Shown in pieces: positions 8,071-31,478 of a stretch of DNA of 49,068 nt. The stretch covers positions 1-49,068 of the forward strand of contig DUEY01000017.1 of the NCBI GenBank assembly GCA_011174795.1. Direction: 5' to 3'. Within the stretch, counting starts at the first letter, position 1. Each line of letters begins with the position of its first letter. The DNA comes from Dehalococcoidia bacterium (GTDB lineage Bacteria; Chloroflexota; Dehalococcoidia; SZUA-161). The notes beneath the pieces were generated by a model that made no database searches, was not told the origin of the DNA, and was given only the letters and a program-made list of their open reading frames with translations. A program made the translations under genes and the position numbers.

Positions 8071-8475
8071 ATGATAGAGGCGATTTCGGAATTGCTCTAC
8101 ATCCTCGCCGACGGACTTCAGGAAGTAGGTCTACGTCTCGGTTTTTGCATCAGTGATTACATGTGCGGCCCTCCCTATTTTAATGAGGATGGCACAGTAA
8201 TAGTAAATAGGATTAGAGGGTTTGACGGCACGTGTCCTGAGGGAGCCGATGCGGTGTTGTTCCAGAAGAACCTTTGGTTGTTGGAATACTGGGGGCCTGC
8301 GGTATGGGGAAAGGCCCCCGAGGGCTGGGGTCCAGGAGAGTTTGGAGAGCTTAATGTCTTGCTGGTGTTTTTTAACAAGGCAGCGGCGCCTTTTGCTGCC
8401 TCTACAGGAGATCAGGTTTATTGGATGGGTAGATTAATATCCGAGGTTGCCGAGGCGGTCCAGGAACTGGTGTAA
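8071..8475 (+). CDS. Small uncharacterised protein A, MIxAI...ELV family
   Basis: 134 aa; N-term MIEAISELLYILADGLQEVGLRLG and C-term GRLISEVAEAVQELV match two downstream neighbours. Confidence 0.75.
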   Translation: MIEAISELLYILADGLQEVGLRLGFCISDYMCGPPYFNEDGTVIVNRIRGFDGTCPEGADAVLFQKNLWLLEYWGPAVWGKAPEGWGPGEFGELNVLLVFFNKAAAPFAASTGDQVYWMGRLISEVAEAVQELV

Positions 8476-8499
8476 AAAGTAGCAACGGAGTAAGATGGG

Positions 8500-8892
8500 A
8501 TGATTGACGCGATATCACAGCTACTAACTGATCTTGGGTGGGCTATCAGTGAGGCTGGCGCTCGACTGAGTTATAACGCCGCTCAAATAGCAGATAACCA
8601 GTACCTTGGTGGTAAAGATTACACTGCCATGAAAGAGTGTCAAAATTGGAATAATTACTGTAATTATATTTGGGCCGGGGAGCTGGGCAGGCCTCTCGAT
8701 GAGTGCCCGCCGAATCCATATCCCAGTTGGTGTCCGGGCTGTACCTGGGATTGTTTCAATGCAGATTTAGACGCTGCGTCAGTACTTGGTAATCTGCTTG
8801 GTTTTTCTTTCGGGTACAAGGGCGGTGAGTTAATACACGACGTAGGTGCAATAATCGCAGAACTCGCGGATGCACTGAAGGAGCTTGTGTAA
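8500..8892 (+). CDS. Small uncharacterised protein B, same family, Cys/Trp-rich centre
   Basis: 130 aa; N-term MIDAISQLLTDLGWAISEAGARLSYNA and C-term GAIIAELADALKELV; central ECPPNPYPSWCPGCTWDC. Confidence 0.78.
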   Translation: MIDAISQLLTDLGWAISEAGARLSYNAAQIADNQYLGGKDYTAMKECQNWNNYCNYIWAGELGRPLDECPPNPYPSWCPGCTWDCFNADLDAASVLGNLLGFSFGYKGGELIHDVGAIIAELADALKELV

Positions 8893-8935
8893 TCTTTAGT
8901 GAACGGGAGTACAAATAGAAAGGGGGTGAGTAAGA

Positions 8936-9181
8936 ATGATTGATGCGTTGGCAAATTTAATGACGGCCGTAGCAGATGCGATTTCGCTGGCTGGCGAGCG
9001 ACTAGCAGTGAATGCGAATGACGCTGTCAGTTGTGACTGGACCGACCTAGGGGCTACCACCGGGCTAACAACGTTCATAAACGCAGCCCTCATGCCGTTC
9101 ATAGATGAGGCTGGTAACATGATTGCCAACATCGGCATAGTTATTGAGGAGCTGGCTGATGCAATGACGGAGCTTGCCTAG
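8936..9181 (+). CDS. Small uncharacterised protein C, same family
   Basis: 81 aa; MIDALANLMTAVADAISLAGERLAVNAN...GIVIEELADAMTELA; good SD aagggggtgag upstream. Confidence 0.8.
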   Translation: MIDALANLMTAVADAISLAGERLAVNANDAVSCDWTDLGATTGLTTFINAALMPFIDEAGNMIANIGIVIEELADAMTELA

Positions 9182-9370
9182 GATATCCTCTGGGTAAAGG
9201 TACTAGCCGCACCAGCCAAGTAGTAGATGGCTCTCAACATTATCATGTGAGAAGCCCTATCGCTGATAAGTTAATACGTGTTGTCTAATTCAGCGATAAT
9301 GATACTTGATTGTGTAGATGGCTTGTAGATATCTGTTGAAATCACATTTGAGGCCTCAAAGCGTAAGTGA

Positions 9371-9388
9371 GGGGGGAGTTTTCCCCCC
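9371..9388. terminator. G/C-tract hairpin, possible terminator
   Basis: GGGGGGA-GTTT-TCCCCCC followed by a T-rich tract. Confidence 0.4.
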
Positions 9389-9457
9389 TTCCTTATTATA
9401 CCTGTGGGGTGAAGCTTGTTTCCAGACTTACAGTGGCTTGAGCTACGGGGACGCATT

Positions 9458-9973
9458 ATGAACAAAAAGGGAGCGGCAGCAGCGCTCATATCCTTCCTGA
9501 TAATTTTAGTGGCATTTGGCGCGAGTTTTGCTTGTGGGGAGGTTTTGCCTGCGACCACCGAATATTATCAGATCGGCGAACGAGTTCAGACCTCAACGGA
9601 AATGCTCACCGTCCTTTCTGTGGAGAGGACAAACATTTATAAGCGTTCGGGCGCAGGGGCAATATTGCGTACAAAGGTTTATCCACCACCGACAACGCTG
9701 TTCATAATAGTGGAGGTTACTGTTATCAATGTGGGTAAGGACAAGTACAGTATATCTCCGGATGATTTTACCCTGACAGACTTGGCAGGCCATGAGTACG
9801 CTTATACTGATTACGAGGGTCGTGATCCATACCGTGGTATGGGGCTAGATCCTGGGGCGACGACTCACGGATATATCTTATATATCGTGCCTGAGGAGAT
9901 CACAGAGTTCGAACTCTCCTGCACCATCCACGGCACTCCTCCCATACTCGCTGTATGGGAGCTTGAATGGTAG
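9458..9973 (+). CDS. Exported or membrane-anchored DUF4352-like protein
   Basis: MNKKGAAAALISFLIILVAFGASFAC signal/anchor, then IGERVQTSTEMLTVLSVERT...LFIIVEVTVINVGKDKYSISPDDFTLTD...LDPGATTHGYILYIVPEEITEFELS, a DUF4352 pattern; start moved in from 9416. Confidence 0.75.
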   Translation: MNKKGAAAALISFLIILVAFGASFACGEVLPATTEYYQIGERVQTSTEMLTVLSVERTNIYKRSGAGAILRTKVYPPPTTLFIIVEVTVINVGKDKYSISPDDFTLTDLAGHEYAYTDYEGRDPYRGMGLDPGATTHGYILYIVPEEITEFELSCTIHGTPPILAVWELEW

Positions 9974-10134
9974 CAAAACAGCATTACCCCTACAGTTCTT
10001 TGGACCTCAATGAAACTCGGCAATTCTCCCATAGATACCCTCTACTGATGGCTTGGCAGAGACAATGTGAAAAGTCAACTATGCTCCAGTAGTTAGAGAG
10101 GAACCGAGTTCGTGTACGCTATCATGTAACACGC

Positions 10135-10164
10135 TTGACAAAACTGGGGATGCTATTTTATTCT
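10135..10164 (+). promoter_or_regulatory. Possible sigma70-type promoter upstream of protein D
   Basis: TTGACA (10135-10140), N18, TATTCT. Confidence 0.35.
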
Positions 10165-10217
10165 TAAGCAAGCATATCTTCGAAATATATCAATAGGAAG
10201 TTGGGAACCTGATTTAG

Positions 10218-10238
10218 CTCTACTCGGAGGGAGTAGAG
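10218..10238. promoter_or_regulatory. Hairpin CTCTACTC-GGAGG-GAGTAGAG presenting GGAGG in the loop
   Basis: Perfect 8-bp stem with a Shine-Dalgarno-like pentamer as loop. Confidence 0.35.
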
Positions 10239-10319
10239 AGTAGGTGAACTTGTATTTATTTATTATCACATTAATAGTAATGGTAATAAGAACACGAGGC
10301 TAGCAGGAAGTCAATTACT

Positions 10320-10514
10320 ATGCTTGAAGAGGTATCAGCTAACGCTACGGTAGATGTGCTGGAGTTCGTCGATCTTGTGCTTGGTATCTGGGTGGACCTC
10401 GGAGCCGAGGAGCAGATAACGTTCTACGGTTCAGAGCTTGCCAAGGCTTTGGCTGAGGTAGGCATATTTATAGTGGATATCGCGTCACGACTTGCGCTTA
10501 ATATATCAACCTAG
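10320..10514 (+). CDS. Small uncharacterised protein D, possible rearranged member of the same family
   Basis: 64 aa; C-term ELAKALAEVGIFIVDIASRLALN resembles the N-terminal helix of proteins A-C; aggaag upstream. Confidence 0.55.
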   Translation: MLEEVSANATVDVLEFVDLVLGIWVDLGAEEQITFYGSELAKALAEVGIFIVDIASRLALNIST

Positions 10515-10565
10515 CTGGCTATCCCGCTCTACAAGGTTCTATGGAGTTTGGTGGTGTAATAGGAA

Positions 10566-11513
10566 ATGAACAGTTGGTTGTTGGCTATATTACGCGAACA
10601 TAAAGTAGCGATAGCTATATTACTGGCACTGCTCCTATTAATACTGGCAGCTTTACCGGTAGCAGCCAGCCCATTGGCGATTTCGGCGGTTGAGACCGGT
10701 AATGTAACCGAAACCTCAGCCACTATCACGTGGACCACCGATGTGCCTGCCGACAGCGTGGTGAATTATGGGACTACGCCGAGCTTAGGGCTCACTGCCT
10801 CTGATGCTACGCTGGTCACCAATCATTCCATAACACTGAACGACCTTGTACTCGGGACAACCTACTACTATGAGGTACAATCGACAGATGGATGGGGCAA
10901 TACTACAACTGACGATAATGCAGGCGACTACTATAAAATTAGACTTTACAAGCTCACCGGCTGGGGTTGGTGCACAGACTACACCGAGATAGCAAGCGCT
11001 GAATTCGTGGCCAATGGTGTTTTGGTTCCCCGAGATGGTACACCTGAGGTCAGCGATGTACACCTGGTAGGTAATGTGACTTTGACACTGAGTGATGACT
11101 CAACTGAAAATATTGCCCTCAATATGTGGGGCAGTAAGGTCAGGTCGCTGTTCCAGGTGCGTCAATCCGCAGAACGCAAGTCTGCGCACTTGTGGGGGGT
11201 CTGGCTTACCTGGGATAGTAGCGAATATATAAGTGGTATGGGTGAAATCACCCTTCCCGAGGGTGAGGTCTTCGAAACGGCAAAGCTTTACGTGCTTCAG
11301 TTGAAGACGCCAGACGTCATAATCCAGAACAAAGAACCCGGCAGCTTTGTTGAGGACTTGGAATACCTGATTACCAAATTCACAAAGTTCATGGATGACC
11401 TTATTGACGAGCTTATGTTGACCGATTTTGCCGAAGTCCTCGGTGATGTTTTAGCTAAGTTAATGGTGCTGTTGGCAGAGGTCAGGGGCATGGTCGGCCC
11501 CTATATTCCGTAG
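10566..11513 (+). CDS. Exported protein with fibronectin type III / purple-acid-phosphatase-N-like domain
   Basis: N-terminal signal peptide (AIAILLALLLLILAALPVAAS); ISAVETGNVTETSATITWTTDVPADSVVNYGTT...LNDLVLGTTYYYEVQSTDGWGNTTT; helical C-terminus. Confidence 0.82.
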   Translation: MNSWLLAILREHKVAIAILLALLLLILAALPVAASPLAISAVETGNVTETSATITWTTDVPADSVVNYGTTPSLGLTASDATLVTNHSITLNDLVLGTTYYYEVQSTDGWGNTTTDDNAGDYYKIRLYKLTGWGWCTDYTEIASAEFVANGVLVPRDGTPEVSDVHLVGNVTLTLSDDSTENIALNMWGSKVRSLFQVRQSAERKSAHLWGVWLTWDSSEYISGMGEITLPEGEVFETAKLYVLQLKTPDVIIQNKEPGSFVEDLEYLITKFTKFMDDLIDELMLTDFAEVLGDVLAKLMVLLAEVRGMVGPYIP

Positions 11514-11523
11514 ACGGAGCGAG

Positions 11524-12255
11524 ATGGATTTCTTTCAGATACTCTTCGTAGGCGGTATCATCGGGGTACTGTTGATTGCCGCTATCTTTGGGGTGCTTCC
11601 TCTAGCAGCCCTTGTCTACGTTTGGAGGCGTGTTTTTCCCATTGCCGAGAGGATTGCGCTATGGGCAGCTAAGCCTGCAAATCTGTTCAGCTTGCTACTA
11701 CTGACCATACTTCTTTTTCTGTTGAGCATATTTGGTGCTTCATACGTTAGTGCTTGGCTTATTTTATTAATCGTTTTTCCGATAATCCTAACAGTTATTG
11801 TGGAACTTGCTATACTTGTCTGGATAATTAGGCTACTCCAGTGGTTGTATCGCCACTGGCGAGAGTGGCTCGTCAGCCTCTACTATTCTGCACGCCTGAC
11901 ACTCATTAAGCTCAGAATCGAGATCGATACGCTTAGGGAAGAGGGCTTCAGGGGCAGGTTAAACAATAGGAATCATAAGAATAGGTATAATAATTACAAT
12001 AACAAGTTTAACAATAAGTATAACAACAGGCTGAACAACCGACCCAATAACCGACCCAACAACAGGCTGAATAACGGACCCAATAACCGACCCAACAACA
12101 GGCTGAACAACAAGCCTAATAACAGGCCCAACAACAGGCTGAACAACGGGCCTAATAACCGGCCTAACAACAGGCCCAACAACAGGCTGAACAACGGGCC
12201 TAATAACCGGCCTAACAACAGGAATGCGGGCGACTTCCCAGAGGGAAGCCATTAA
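11524..12255 (+). CDS. Multi-spanning membrane protein with Asn/Arg/Pro-rich tetrapeptide-repeat tail
   Basis: About 4 hydrophobic segments, then NNRPNNRPNNRLNNGP... repeats; 10 nt after the FnIII-like gene. Confidence 0.8.
   Translation: MDFFQILFVGGIIGVLLIAAIFGVLPLAALVYVWRRVFPIAERIALWAAKPANLFSLLLLTILLFLLSIFGASYVSAWLILLIVFPIILTVIVELAILVWIIRLLQWLYRHWREWLVSLYYSARLTLIKLRIEIDTLREEGFRGRLNNRNHKNRYNNYNNKFNNKYNNRLNNRPNNRPNNRLNNGPNNRPNNRLNNKPNNRPNNRLNNGPNNRPNNRPNNRLNNGPNNRPNNRNAGDFPEGSH
11962..12222. repeat. In-frame 12-nt (4-aa) repeat tract with a 48-nt higher-order unit
   Basis: NNRx units; AACAACAGGCTGAACAACGGGCCTAATAACCGGCCTAACAACAGG occurs exactly at 12130 and 12178. Confidence 0.9.
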
Positions 12256-12321
12256 AAGGCGGCCAAGCTCCAGAATACAGAATCAGCTTATAGCGAGTTA
12301 TTTAGAAAGGAGGTGGAAAGC

Positions 12322-12477
12322 GTGGGCTGGAAAGACAGGTTTATGTTAAAGATGATGAGCAACAAGATAATAATGAAGATTTTCAGCATACCGATCGTTC
12401 TCAAGATCACAATGTGGGAAATAAAAGTCATATCAGCAATTCTATCTATATTCAAGAGAAAACAACCTGCTAGTTGA
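12322..12477 (+). CDS. 51-aa basic, hydrophobic/amphipathic peptide (GTG start; absent from the ORF track)
   Basis: VGWKDRFMLKMMSNKIIMKIFSIPIVLKITMWEIKVISAILSIFKRKQPAS* preceded by AAGGAGGTGG at 8-nt spacing. Confidence 0.6.
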   Translation: MGWKDRFMLKMMSNKIIMKIFSIPIVLKITMWEIKVISAILSIFKRKQPAS

Positions 12478-27113: not shown

Positions 27114-29321
27114 TTAGTCCAGAAGGACCCAGAGCGGGCACATCACCAGCGTTACTGTGGCTATGAGTTTAGCTACAATGTGCAGTGAGGGCCCCACGGT
27201 ATCCTTAAGGGGGTCGCCAGCGGTATCACCAGCTACACCGGCAGCGTGAGCATAGGAACCTTTGCCGAGGACATTCCCTGCTTCATCCTTAAGCTGTCCG
27301 TCCTCAATGTACTTCTTAGCATTATCCCAGGCACCGCCGCCGTTATTCATGAAGGAGGCCACCAGAATAGCAGTAAAAGTCCCTACTATCAGGAAGGCGC
27401 CTACCGCCATCGGGGCATCGTAGTCAGGAACGAATCTGAAGATGACACCGATAGCTATGGGAAGAAGGACGGGAAGCAGTGCGGGAGCAATCATTCCCCG
27501 TAATGCCGCCCTCGTAGTTATGTCAACTGCCCTACCGTAGTCAGGTCTGGAGGTGCCCTGCATGATACCTGGGTCAGCCTTAATCTGGCGTCGCACCTCC
27601 TCGATTATCTTGCTTGCAGCTCCACCCACCGACTTAAGCGCCCAGGAACTGAAAAGGAAGACCATCAGAATGGCAAGGATCGCGCCGATGAGAACCTCGG
27701 GTAATACCAGGTTCACATCGAACAGCTCCCCTTCCCTGTGCTGGAACAGCAGTACCCTATCGAAATAGGCCTGGAAGAGCAGAAAGCCAGCCAGTCCTGC
27801 CGAGACCATGGCGTATCCCTTGGTAAGAGCTTTGGTAGTATTGCCGGTAGCATCGAGATGGTCGGTAACCCTTCGTATCTCAGAACCGGCACCGGTGAAC
27901 TCGTTGATTCCATTGGCGTTATCCGTTATCGGGCCAAAGGTATCCTCAGCCAGTATAAATGGACAGGTCATCAGCATACCCATGGTAGCTATTGCTGTGC
28001 CATAGGCGCCGCTCATCCACCAATCTACCTCCAGGCCGGAGGTCGTGCCCAGCCAGTAGGAGAGCCCCATAGCAGCACAGATGACGAGTGCCGTCGCCAT
28101 GACTGTCTCAAAGCCCACCGAAAGACCAGTTACGAATGTAGTTGCCGGTCCCGTGCGGCAGGCCTCTGCGATTCCTCTTGTGGGGCCGAATCTCGCTTCA
28201 GTGTAGTACTGCGTAATATACAGTATCAGTACGCTGGCCCCTATACCAACAAAACCAGCCAGCATAAGCCACTGCCACCCGGAGCACATGTCGTTGAACA
28301 TCTGCCAGCAGGTGAAGGCCATCGCTGCGATACAGAGAATCAGCGACACATAATAGCCGCGGTTGAGGGCATTCATGGGATTCTCATCTTCACCTCTACT
28401 GCGTATCGCCACTGTACCGATCATGCTGGCGAGAATGCCAAAGCCACGGATAACGAGTGGGAAGAGTACCCAGCCTACAGCGGCGACGGGGCCAAACTTG
28501 TCCAATGAGACTGCATAAAGAGCCACTCCTATTATCATAGCGCCGATGTTCTCGGCTGCCGTCGATTCAAACAAATCAGCGCCACGACCGGCACAGTCAC
28601 CGACGTTATCACCAACCTGGTCGGCGATTACCGCTGCGTTGCGGGGGTCATCCTCGGGAATCCCCGCCTCGACCTTACCAGCGAGGTCAGCACCCATATC
28701 AGCAGCCTTTGTATAGATACCACCGCCAAGCTGAGCGAAAAGGGCAACCATGCTGGCACCAAAGCCAAATCCGACTATAAGGTGAGGAGCGATATCAGGA
28801 TTGTTAGCTCCTCCAAAAATGTAAAATATCGCCGTTACTCCCAGCAGGCTCAGTATCACGATGAGGAAACCGGATACTGCCCCGCCGCGTATCGCTACCT
28901 TGATGGCTTCGTTTGTGCCGCGGTGAGAAGCTGCTGCACAGCGAACGTTGGATTTCACCGCAATCCACATACCGACAATACCGGAGACACAAGAACAAAG
29001 GGAGCCGGCGAGAAATGCCACCGTGGTCCTCCATCCCAGGCCGAATGCCGATACCCCCAGCCTCTCCAGTTCATCCTCGCTGCTCAGCATTCCGAGTATA
29101 ACGCCGATTATCACTCCTACTACCAAGGCTGTTATACCGATAGTGGAGTACTGGCGCCTGATAAAAGCCCAGGCGCCCTCAGTGATCCTGGCGTTAACAT
29201 CCTGCATTTCCGCTGAGCCCGGATCACTGCGCAGGATATACCTTATCAGGCCAATAGAGAAAATAAGGCCTACGCCGCATCCTACTGCTACCACCCAGAA
29301 AATTCCCGGAATCTGGGACAT
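27114..29321 (-). CDS. hppA: Membrane-bound pyrophosphatase, K+-independent (H+-PPase) type
   Basis: DVGDNVGDCAGRGADLFEST-type substrate loop (ADQVGDNVGDCAGRGADLFES) and GNTTKA with Lys. Confidence 0.94.
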   Translation of the reverse strand: MSQIPGIFWVVAVGCGVGLIFSIGLIRYILRSDPGSAEMQDVNARITEGAWAFIRRQYSTIGITALVVGVIIGVILGMLSSEDELERLGVSAFGLGWRTTVAFLAGSLCSCVSGIVGMWIAVKSNVRCAAASHRGTNEAIKVAIRGGAVSGFLIVILSLLGVTAIFYIFGGANNPDIAPHLIVGFGFGASMVALFAQLGGGIYTKAADMGADLAGKVEAGIPEDDPRNAAVIADQVGDNVGDCAGRGADLFESTAAENIGAMIIGVALYAVSLDKFGPVAAVGWVLFPLVIRGFGILASMIGTVAIRSRGEDENPMNALNRGYYVSLILCIAAMAFTCWQMFNDMCSGWQWLMLAGFVGIGASVLILYITQYYTEARFGPTRGIAEACRTGPATTFVTGLSVGFETVMATALVICAAMGLSYWLGTTSGLEVDWWMSGAYGTAIATMGMLMTCPFILAEDTFGPITDNANGINEFTGAGSEIRRVTDHLDATGNTTKALTKGYAMVSAGLAGFLLFQAYFDRVLLFQHREGELFDVNLVLPEVLIGAILAILMVFLFSSWALKSVGGAASKIIEEVRRQIKADPGIMQGTSRPDYGRAVDITTRAALRGMIAPALLPVLLPIAIGVIFRFVPDYDAPMAVGAFLIVGTFTAILVASFMNNGGGAWDNAKKYIEDGQLKDEAGNVLGKGSYAHAAGVAGDTAGDPLKDTVGPSLHIVAKLIATVTLVMCPLWVLLD

Positions 29322-29350
29322 CTAACCCTCCTTTCTTATCGTATATTTAA

Positions 29351-29397
29351 ATAAGCACAAACCAAATGTCTCAAGAAAACGTTTGGTTCATGCTTAT
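29351..29397. terminator. Inverted repeat between the two pyrophosphatase genes
   Basis: ATAAGCACAAACCAAA / TTTGGTTCATGCTTAT, 14 of 16 paired, 15-nt loop. Confidence 0.45.
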
Positions 29398-29441
29398 CGA
29401 TCCGGATAGAAAACGAAAAACTCATTGCCCCATATTACAAG

Positions 29442-31478
29442 CTAAGAGACTACAAGTACAAATAACGGCACGAAGATAACTGCGACCTTGCCCACAACCT
29501 TAATCAGGATATTGAGTGACGGGCCGGCTGTATCCTTAAACGGGTCGCCAACGGTATCACCCGATACAGCTGCTTTATGGGCAGGGCTGCCCTTGCCTCC
29601 TAAATGCCCGGCCTCTATATATTTCTTCGCGTTATCCCAGGCCCCTCCGGCGTTGGCCATCAGTATCGCCAGAACAAAGCCGCTTACCAGCACCCCTGCC
29701 AGTAACCCCGCCAGAGCCTCCAGCCCCAGGCCAAAACCTAGTGCGAGCGGCACGATTATCACCAGTATTCCCGGAGTTATCATGCCCTTCAGAGCCTTTC
29801 GGGTAGTTATGTCAACGCAATGGGAGTAGTCGGCTGTAGCAGTGCCTTCCATAAGACCTGTTATCTCATGGAATTGCCTCCTGACCTCCTTGCACACTGC
29901 ATAAGCACCATAGCTCACTGCCCGCATCGACAGAGCGGAAAAAAGGAAAGGTAGCATGGCGCCGATGAACAAGCCAACCATCACTTCTGGCTCAGTGAGG
30001 CTTACGATTATCGATTCGCCTGTCTCCTTCTCAGCCACAGCGAAGAAGGTAGCCAGCCAGGCTAAGGCCGCCAGCGCTGCCGACGATATAGCAAACCCCT
30101 TGCCTATGGCAGCTGTGGTGTTGCCCACCGAGTCCAGGGCTTCAGTACGTTCTCTGACCTCTTTGCCCAGTCCACCCATTTCCGAGATTCCCGCGGCATT
30201 ATCGGCTATCGGCCCGTAGCAGTCTATAGCCAGTAGCATCCCCAGTGTGATTAACATGCCCTCAGCAGCTATGGCTATACCGAAAAGTCCGGCAGCCTTG
30301 TAAGCAAGCCAGGTCGCGATGGCGACGAGGATTATGGGCACCACGGTGCTGAACATGCCGACGGAGAGCCCCTGGATAATATTAGTGGCAGCGCCCATCT
30401 CGCTTACTCGCGCTATACCCTTAACAGGGCCTCTCTCCGAGGTGAAATACTCTGTCGATATCCCGATCAGGAACCCACAGACTAAACCGATTATCACTGC
30501 ATAGAAGACTCCGATTTCATCGGAGCCCAGATAGAACCATACCAGCAGGAAACCGCCTATAATCATCAATATGTTACTGGCGTACACCCCCCGGTTCATA
30601 GTCGAGCGAGCCTTTGCTGTCTGCTCTTCGAAGCTTCCTCTGGCCTCAGGAGGCCTGACGAAGAAGGTTCCAATTACTGCGGCAACCACTCCCACTGCAC
30701 CCAGAAGCAGCGGAAAAAAAGCCCCCTTAGCGGCTCCAAGTACGGCAGGAGCTATGCCCAGCACCATGGATGCTGCTATTGCGGATACGTAGGATTCGAA
30801 AAGGTCGGAGCCCATCCCGGCAATGTCTCCTACGTTATCACCCACATTGTCCGCTATCGTCGCAGGATTTCTGGGGTCATCCTCCGGTATCCCCGCCTCC
30901 ACCTTCCCCACCAGGTCGGCACCGACATCAGCGCTCTTAGTGAATATTCCACCGCCGACCCTGAGGAATAGGGCCACTATCGAGGCGCCAACAGCATATC
31001 CCAGCCAGACATGACTGTCATCGAACAAAATTACAATAATAGCCAGGCCCAGCAGCCCCAGGCCGACGACACAGAACCCCATTACCGCTCCCCCAGAGAA
31101 GGCTATCTTGAGTGCCTGCGCCCAACTCGATATCGCCGCGGTAGCCGTTCTCGAATTTGCCCTCACGGCGATACTCATGCCCAAGTACCCTGCCAGTGCC
31201 GAGGTTAGTGTCCCGACGAGGTACGCCAGACCAACCCATCCCCTAGGTTCCAACGCTGCAGCGAAAATCGCAGTCATGACGACGGTGACAATGGCTAGAG
31301 CCCGAAATTCGTCGTGCAGGAAAGTGCTGGCGCCTTCCTGAATCGCTGAAGCTATCTCCCTGACCTTATCCGAACCTCTATCCTGACGGAGAATGTAAAG
31401 CGCCAGATAGCCGGCGAAAACCAGCGCAAGAAGTCCAGCGAGAAAGACGGGTATCATTTCGACACGTGCGTAGTCCAT
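29442..31478 (-). CDS. hppA: Membrane-bound pyrophosphatase, K+-dependent (Na+ or H+) type
   Basis: ADNVGDNVGDIAGMGSDLFESY substrate loop and GNTTAA with Ala. Confidence 0.94.
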   Translation of the reverse strand: MDYARVEMIPVFLAGLLALVFAGYLALYILRQDRGSDKVREIASAIQEGASTFLHDEFRALAIVTVVMTAIFAAALEPRGWVGLAYLVGTLTSALAGYLGMSIAVRANSRTATAAISSWAQALKIAFSGGAVMGFCVVGLGLLGLAIIVILFDDSHVWLGYAVGASIVALFLRVGGGIFTKSADVGADLVGKVEAGIPEDDPRNPATIADNVGDNVGDIAGMGSDLFESYVSAIAASMVLGIAPAVLGAAKGAFFPLLLGAVGVVAAVIGTFFVRPPEARGSFEEQTAKARSTMNRGVYASNILMIIGGFLLVWFYLGSDEIGVFYAVIIGLVCGFLIGISTEYFTSERGPVKGIARVSEMGAATNIIQGLSVGMFSTVVPIILVAIATWLAYKAAGLFGIAIAAEGMLITLGMLLAIDCYGPIADNAAGISEMGGLGKEVRERTEALDSVGNTTAAIGKGFAISSAALAALAWLATFFAVAEKETGESIIVSLTEPEVMVGLFIGAMLPFLFSALSMRAVSYGAYAVCKEVRRQFHEITGLMEGTATADYSHCVDITTRKALKGMITPGILVIIVPLALGFGLGLEALAGLLAGVLVSGFVLAILMANAGGAWDNAKKYIEAGHLGGKGSPAHKAAVSGDTVGDPFKDTAGPSLNILIKVVGKVAVIFVPLFVLVVS

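What the first reader, a model, noticed from the sequence alone, without database searches (positions are those of the whole stretch)
8071..12477. Apparently undescribed cassette of small helical proteins, exported FnIII and DUF4352 proteins, and an N-rich membrane protein
All eight genes are co-directional between metF2 and tRNA-Ser: three short paralogues A-C, DUF4352-like, short protein D, FnIII-like exported, NNR-tail membrane protein, and a 51-aa peptide. I recognise no known system with this combination. The mix of non-secreted amphipathic small proteins, exported adhesion-like domains and a membrane protein suggests a surface, envelope or self-assembling structure, but function is unknown.
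Basis: partly seen in the sequence, partly recalled or inferred. Interest (0 to 1): 0.75.

Follow-up and report, generated by a model that had tools for sequence, protein, structure and literature searches.

The report
Undescribed surface-protein module of Dehalococcoidia
A row of eight small genes in an uncultivated Chloroflexota (Dehalococcoidia) bacterium belongs to a set of undescribed gene families that recur together in related genomes, often beside a protein-glycosylating enzyme, and that probably builds a sugar-coated structure on the cell surface.

Summary
The eight co-directional ORFs exist as described, and the cassette is not a chance assembly. In 393 sampled Dehalococcoidia genomes, a profile of the FnIII protein's conserved C-terminal half (undescribed beta domain plus helical hairpin) hits 12 genomes. 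In 11 of 13 loci the membrane protein lies directly downstream; the N-rich tail is peculiar to this genome. The 51-aa peptide follows the membrane gene in four genomes. Two unrelated families of small helical proteins (A-C and D) and DUF4352 proteins recur with it. Only FnIII and DUF4352 match Pfam; the rest match nothing in Pfam, NCBIfam, PADLOC or PDB sequences. D-type hairpin clusters sit beside STT3/AglB-type oligosaccharyltransferase genes in six genomes. D-type and beta proteins are enriched in N-glycosylation sequons, which in D-type proteins concentrate in the inter-helix loop. A D-type hairpin also ends an exported beta-helix protein. Best reading: a class-restricted cell-surface glycoprotein module, in which exported stalks and helical hairpins assemble on the envelope with a basic-tailed membrane protein. 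Type VII secretion was tested and not supported; gas vesicle and defence families gave no match. Surface location, assembly, glycosylation and role are inferred, not shown.

The parts
8071..8475 (+). Protein A, 134 aa, C-type small helical family with a large insert between the two helical ends; net charge -11
   Evidence: (in the C-type alignment itself)
8500..8892 (+). Protein B, 130 aa, C-type family with a Cys-rich insert; net charge -11
8936..9181 (+). Protein C, 81 aa, C-type family; AlphaFold2 predicts two helices (2-32, 42-80), pLDDT 77
   Evidence: relatives in G002 and G004 and a paralogue at G000:C75
9369..9390 (+). Terminator-like hairpin between C and the DUF4352 gene
   Evidence: consensus scan only
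9458..9973 (+). Exported DUF4352 protein, 171 aa, possible lipoprotein (inferred); close relative at G004:C99
10320..10514 (+). Protein D, 64 aa, D-type hairpin family (helix - WV loop - T..G - helix by sequence pattern)
   Evidence: (in the query alignment itself)
10566..11513 (+). Beta/FnIII protein: N-terminal hydrophobic signal or anchor, one FnIII domain, undescribed beta domain (GWGWC), C-terminal helical hairpin 261-283/288-310
11524..12255 (+). Multi-TM membrane protein with basic N-rich tail; conserved core about residues 1-145
11989..12222 (+). Tandem repeats (12/24/36 nt) encoding the NNR tail; absent from the relatives aligned
12322..12477 (+). 51-aa basic peptide; homologues directly after the membrane gene in G002, G007 and G008

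Best explanation
A class-restricted cell-surface module of Dehalococcoidia. The exported beta/FnIII protein is a stalk-like surface protein that ends in a helical hairpin. The small acidic hairpin proteins (C-type A-C, D-type D) are helical subunits that assemble at or on the membrane or S-layer. The multi-TM protein with a basic, probably cytoplasmic tail and the 51-aa peptide anchor or organise the assembly. In relatives the D-type loops and the beta protein are probably N-glycosylated by an STT3/AglB-type oligosaccharyltransferase, sometimes encoded next door. Shown: co-conservation, gene order, families, sequon enrichment, linkage to STT3. Inferred: surface location of the small proteins in this genome, assembly, glycosylation itself and biological role (envelope stability or adhesion).
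For: Independent profiles for the beta protein (12/393 genomes) and the membrane protein (18/393) meet in 11 genomes; the membrane gene is directly downstream of the beta gene in 11 of 13 loci, one by eye. The D-type profile hits 11 genomes convincingly, 8 of them beta-positive. D-type clusters flank STT3 genes in six genomes: G004, G174, G184, G195, G205, G214. STT3 is in 11/12 beta-positive genomes versus 70/393 overall. Sequons exceed shuffles for D-type (z 6.3) and beta proteins (z 8.9) but not for cytoplasmic controls, the membrane protein, DUF4352 or C-type; 23 of 28 D-type sequons lie in the inter-helix loop. Signal peptides on D-type proteins at G004:C189 (by eye). A D-type hairpin ends an exported beta-helix protein. 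AlphaFold2: hairpin for C; anchor-FnIII-beta-hairpin for the FnIII protein.
Against: A-D in this genome have no signal peptide; C-type proteins are not enriched in sequons and D's two sequons are near its ends, not in the loop. STT3 is not adjacent in this genome (three copies on other contigs). The beta-domain model is low-confidence (residues 191-239 under pLDDT 50). No experiment shows surface location, interaction or glycosylation. Co-occurrence statistics ignore shared ancestry, and D-type paralogues are not independent. FnIII repeats may be sequon-rich for other reasons. The membrane gene occurs without the beta gene in some genomes, and several beta loci show no detectable small hairpin gene upstream.
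Confidence: 0.6

Rival explanations
1. Helical-pore reading: the small acidic hairpins form oligomeric channels in the envelope, as proposed for corynebacterial PorA/PorH, with the FnIII and membrane proteins as accessory parts.
For: Small, acidic, amphipathic, moderately hydrophobic helices, tandem genes, no signal peptide in this genome; PorA/PorH are likewise small, predicted helical, encoded together and lack Sec signals (PMC12632848).
Against: Chloroflexota are described as monoderms (PMC10284905), without the mycolate outer membrane such porins span; no match to any Pfam family; sequon-rich loops are not a known porin trait.
Confidence: 0.15
2. Type VII secretion substrates: the hairpins are WXG100/EsxA-like proteins exported without signal peptides.
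For: EsxA-type hairpins are among the best shape matches of the C model (TM up to 0.72); the loops of C and D contain W-x-D-L-G.
Against: Foldseek E 0.4 or worse, as for many helical hairpins; no Pfam WXG100 match; no EssC over cut-off in 9 of 9 family genomes, only one-domain FtsK-like matches; signal peptides on some D-type relatives.
Confidence: 0.04
3. Leaderless bacteriocin or toxin peptides with a membrane immunity protein.
For: Small amphipathic signal-less proteins near a small basic membrane protein and peptide.
Against: The proteins are acidic and conserved with a surface protein rather than an exporter; no PADLOC or Pfam match.
Confidence: 0.05
4. Unrelated genes accumulated in a variable intergenic region next to a tRNA gene.
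For: Gene content at this site varies between this genome, G007 and G008; probably two or three transcription units.
Against: The same families travel together at other sites and in other families of the class; beta and membrane genes adjacent in 11 of 13 loci.
Confidence: 0.1

Closest known systems
STT3/AglB N-glycosylated surface (S-layer) proteins, archaeal type
   Same: Exported beta-sandwich proteins with many N-X-S/T sequons; STT3-like genes (TIGR04154-like, WWDYG motif) sit beside the module in relatives
   Different: Bacterial; no known S-layer domain; STT3 not adjacent in this genome; glycosylation not shown
Corynebacterial PorA/PorH small helical porins
   Same: Small helical proteins, neighbouring genes, no signal peptide (PMC12632848)
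   Different: No mycomembrane, no sequence similarity, sequon-rich loops in relatives, linked FnIII and membrane proteins
WXG100 (EsxA) proteins of type VII secretion
   Same: Helical hairpin of about 80-100 aa without signal peptide; W in the loop of C and D
   Different: No Pfam WXG100 match and no EssC/EccC in the family
Fibronectin type III and DUF4352 (PF11611) domain proteins
   Same: FnIII repeat and DUF4352 domain are genuine
   Different: The conserved beta domain and hairpin that follow FnIII have no family; DUF4352 has no known function

Membership tests
WXG100 / type VII secretion | Membrane ATPase EssC/EccC in the genome | tested here: not met
   TIGR03928 gives only single-domain FtsK-like matches, none over cut-off, in 9/9 family genomes
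WXG100 / type VII secretion | Pfam WXG100 sequence match | tested here: not met
   No match up to E 1, or up to E 10 for relatives
WXG100 / type VII secretion | Two-helix hairpin fold | tested here: met
   AlphaFold2 model of C, pLDDT 77; EsxA among top shape matches but E 0.4 or worse
Gas vesicle protein GvpA | Pfam Gas_vesicle match and alpha-beta-beta-alpha fold | tested here: not met
   No match; the model of C has no strands; D itself was not modelled
PorA/PorH-type porin | Small helical proteins encoded together, no signal peptide | tested here: met
PorA/PorH-type porin | Mycolate outer membrane and O-mycoloylation | not testable with these tools
   Not expected: Chloroflexota genomes are described as monoderm (PMC10284905)
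PorA/PorH-type porin | Channel activity | not testable with these tools
   Needs bilayer experiments
N-glycosylated surface glycoprotein | Oligosaccharyltransferase in the genome | tested here: met
   Three STT3-like genes in this genome; 11/12 beta-positive genomes
N-glycosylated surface glycoprotein | Exported substrate enriched in N-X-S/T | tested here: met
   Beta proteins z 8.9, D-type z 6.3 against shuffles; loop concentration in D-type
N-glycosylated surface glycoprotein | Glycan attached to the sequons | not testable with these tools
   Needs glycoproteomics
Known anti-phage defence system | PADLOC model match | tested here: not met
   No match for any of the eight proteins
DUF4352 (PF11611) | Score over the curated cut-off | tested here: met
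   47.8 bits against 25.9

The most novel reading that the evidence does not exclude
A new type of bacterial surface structure: N-glycosylated helical hairpins, many without signal peptides, assemble with the loop outside into a membrane-proximal lattice or bundle and hold exported proteins that themselves end in a helical hairpin, as an anchoring system for cells thought to lack peptidoglycan.
Probability: 0.25. Interest if true: 0.85.

Novelty: new variant of a known kind. Interest (0 to 1): 0.6.

Why it matters
Dehalococcoides and Dehalogenimonas are reported to lack peptidoglycan or have no envelope data, and some cultivated Dehalococcoidia have a tetragonal S-layer (PMC10284905), yet I found nothing in the held literature on what builds or modifies the envelope of the uncultivated lineages. 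This module offers five protein families without a database match (C-type, D-type, beta domain, membrane protein, 51-aa peptide), with conserved gene order and linkage to an archaeal-type oligosaccharyltransferase, so that N-glycosylated, hairpin-based surface assembly in these bacteria becomes testable by proteomics, topology mapping and co-expression.

Tried and rejected
GvpA-like reading of D-type hairpins: no Pfam match. WXG100/T7SS: no EssC, Foldseek not significant. Common ancestry of C-type, D-type and beta C-terminal hairpins: hhalign probability 0.7-3.5%, so only a shared helical-hairpin pattern is claimed. Profile A2 of A-C over the family matched only this genome; relatives were found later by reading ORFs upstream of the beta genes. 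PDB sequence search with the beta profile: nothing convincing. Foldseek on the beta model: FnIII only. PADLOC nothing, PHROGs only an unknown-function DUF4352 relative. Tetraspanin hit of the membrane protein (E 2e-4, below cut-off) judged compositional. Mobile-element reading: no recombinase-like ORF seen among window ORFs of 120 aa or more by eye; the cassette lies on the 5' side of the tRNA gene; GC 0.45-0.49 against about 0.50 around it. A phylum-wide sample found the beta profile only within the class. Literature searches found no description.

Full report
Observation. The only RNA feature is tRNA-Ser. The window is contig 9 of a 1.8 Mb, 76-contig genome about 90% complete. Named relatives of the FnIII protein are Dehalococcoidia/Chloroflexi MAGs (Kmv37, DBS2-1.bin62, B_CHL_03, bin1158), so the window is from the class Dehalococcoidia.

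Families. Pfam recognises only DUF4352 and an FnIII-like domain above its cut-offs; NCBIfam and PADLOC find nothing and PHROGs only an unknown-function relative of DUF4352. Aligning six homologues of the FnIII protein shows a variable number of FnIII-like repeats, then a conserved beta domain (GWGWC...) and a C-terminal amphipathic hairpin; the f46 relatives have the beta domain and hairpin with no FnIII match where scanned. AlphaFold2 agrees: N-terminal hydrophobic helix, FnIII strands 39-115 with good confidence, beta strands 123-247 with low confidence in part, helices 261-283 and 288-310. The beta profile has no meaningful PDB sequence match, and Foldseek finds FnIII-type matches.

Co-conservation. 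In 393 sampled genomes of the class the beta profile hits 12 genomes in three families and the membrane-protein profile hits 18; the two searches are independent and 11 genomes are shared. In 11 of 13 beta loci the membrane gene is directly downstream on the same strand (in G205 by eye, since the profile missed it). The exceptions are G002:C60 and G004:C99. The 51-aa peptide follows the membrane gene in this genome, G002, G007 and G008; G007 and G008 keep the miaB/dapA neighbourhood. In family f45 the membrane gene follows exported FnIII/TIG or TIG proteins instead (three of the loci read). A phylum-wide sample gave hits only within the class, and the near-complete single-contig genomes of family f16 listed there lacked the beta gene.

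Small proteins. A, B and C form one family (C-type), with relatives in G002 (two) and G004 (two) and a paralogue on G000:C75 beside an ADH gene and near pyrF. At G004:C99 the same ADH and pyrF genes lie beside a beta locus. D belongs to a second family (D-type: helix, WV, loop, LT..G, helix). Its profile gives convincing hits in 11 genomes plus three weak, probably chance hits. hhalign finds no homology among C-type, D-type and the beta C-terminal hairpin. C is predicted as a two-helix hairpin. The helices are moderately hydrophobic. The window's small proteins are strongly acidic (-9 to -11), while the membrane protein is +22 and the peptide +8.

Surface evidence. Two D-type proteins at G004:C189 have a signal peptide by eye, and one D-type hairpin is the C-terminal domain of an exported right-handed beta-helix protein in G195. 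N-X-S/T sequons exceed composition shuffles in D-type and beta proteins only, and 23 of 28 D-type sequons fall in the inter-helix loop. STT3-type oligosaccharyltransferase genes flank D-type clusters in G004, G174, G184, G195, G205 and G214, and a C-type gene in G002. STT3 is found in 11 of 12 beta-positive genomes against 70 of 393 overall. These tests ignore shared ancestry, so the p-values are only a guide. In this genome the STT3 genes are on other contigs, D carries sequons only near its ends and A-C carry none, so glycosylation of the window's own small proteins is not directly supported; its FnIII protein has four sequons.

Mechanism. Shown: families, gene order, linkage and sequon patterns. 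Inferred: the beta/FnIII protein is a surface stalk, its hairpin and the small hairpins assemble at the envelope, and the membrane protein plus peptide anchor or organise them with the basic tail inside. The N-rich tail is a tandem-repeat expansion within a variable tail. Dehalococcoides and Dehalogenimonas are reported to lack peptidoglycan or have no envelope data, and a tetragonal S-layer is seen in Tepidiforma and some Dehalococcoidaceae (PMC10284905), which makes a dedicated surface assembly plausible.

Rivals. T7SS/WXG100 is not supported. A PorA/PorH-like pore is a reasonable functional analogy but has no sequence support. Bacteriocin and chance readings are unlikely. No paper found in the held library describes this module.

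Noticed in passing
L122:1-2461 (G195:C223): Exported beta-helix protein (PF13229) ends in a D-type hairpin, followed by a stand-alone D-type gene; suggests the hairpin can act as an assembly or anchoring domain.
   Followed up: partly
L045:1059-2267, L048:8444-9598, L050:493-1599: Membrane-protein tails in family f46 carry a repeated W-rich motif resembling [KR]xSWFxSFWALMLGKPQPxRR instead of the NNR tail.
   Followed up: no
L072:2144-4276, L073:3685-5475, L074:4739-6505: In family f45 the membrane gene is preceded by exported FnIII/TIG-type proteins and followed by genes that look like dprA and topA.
   Followed up: partly
L070:3389-4222, L072:1114-1827: Exported proteins that share a C-terminal region beginning CFIATAAYGTP lie near the membrane gene in two families.
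   Followed up: no
L045:2264-3334, L046:5349-6431, L047:10250-11368, L048:9687-10694, L049:4848-5963, L050:1-403: A polyprenyl-synthase-like gene lies directly downstream of the membrane gene in family f46 loci, possibly linked to lipid carriers for glycosylation.
   Followed up: no
L015:3711-4469, L115:3273-3899, L116:2796-3614: RDD-family membrane protein gene next to the short STT3 gene in family f1.
   Followed up: no
window 27114-31478: Two adjacent minus-strand genes that look like membrane proton-translocating pyrophosphatases.
   Followed up: no
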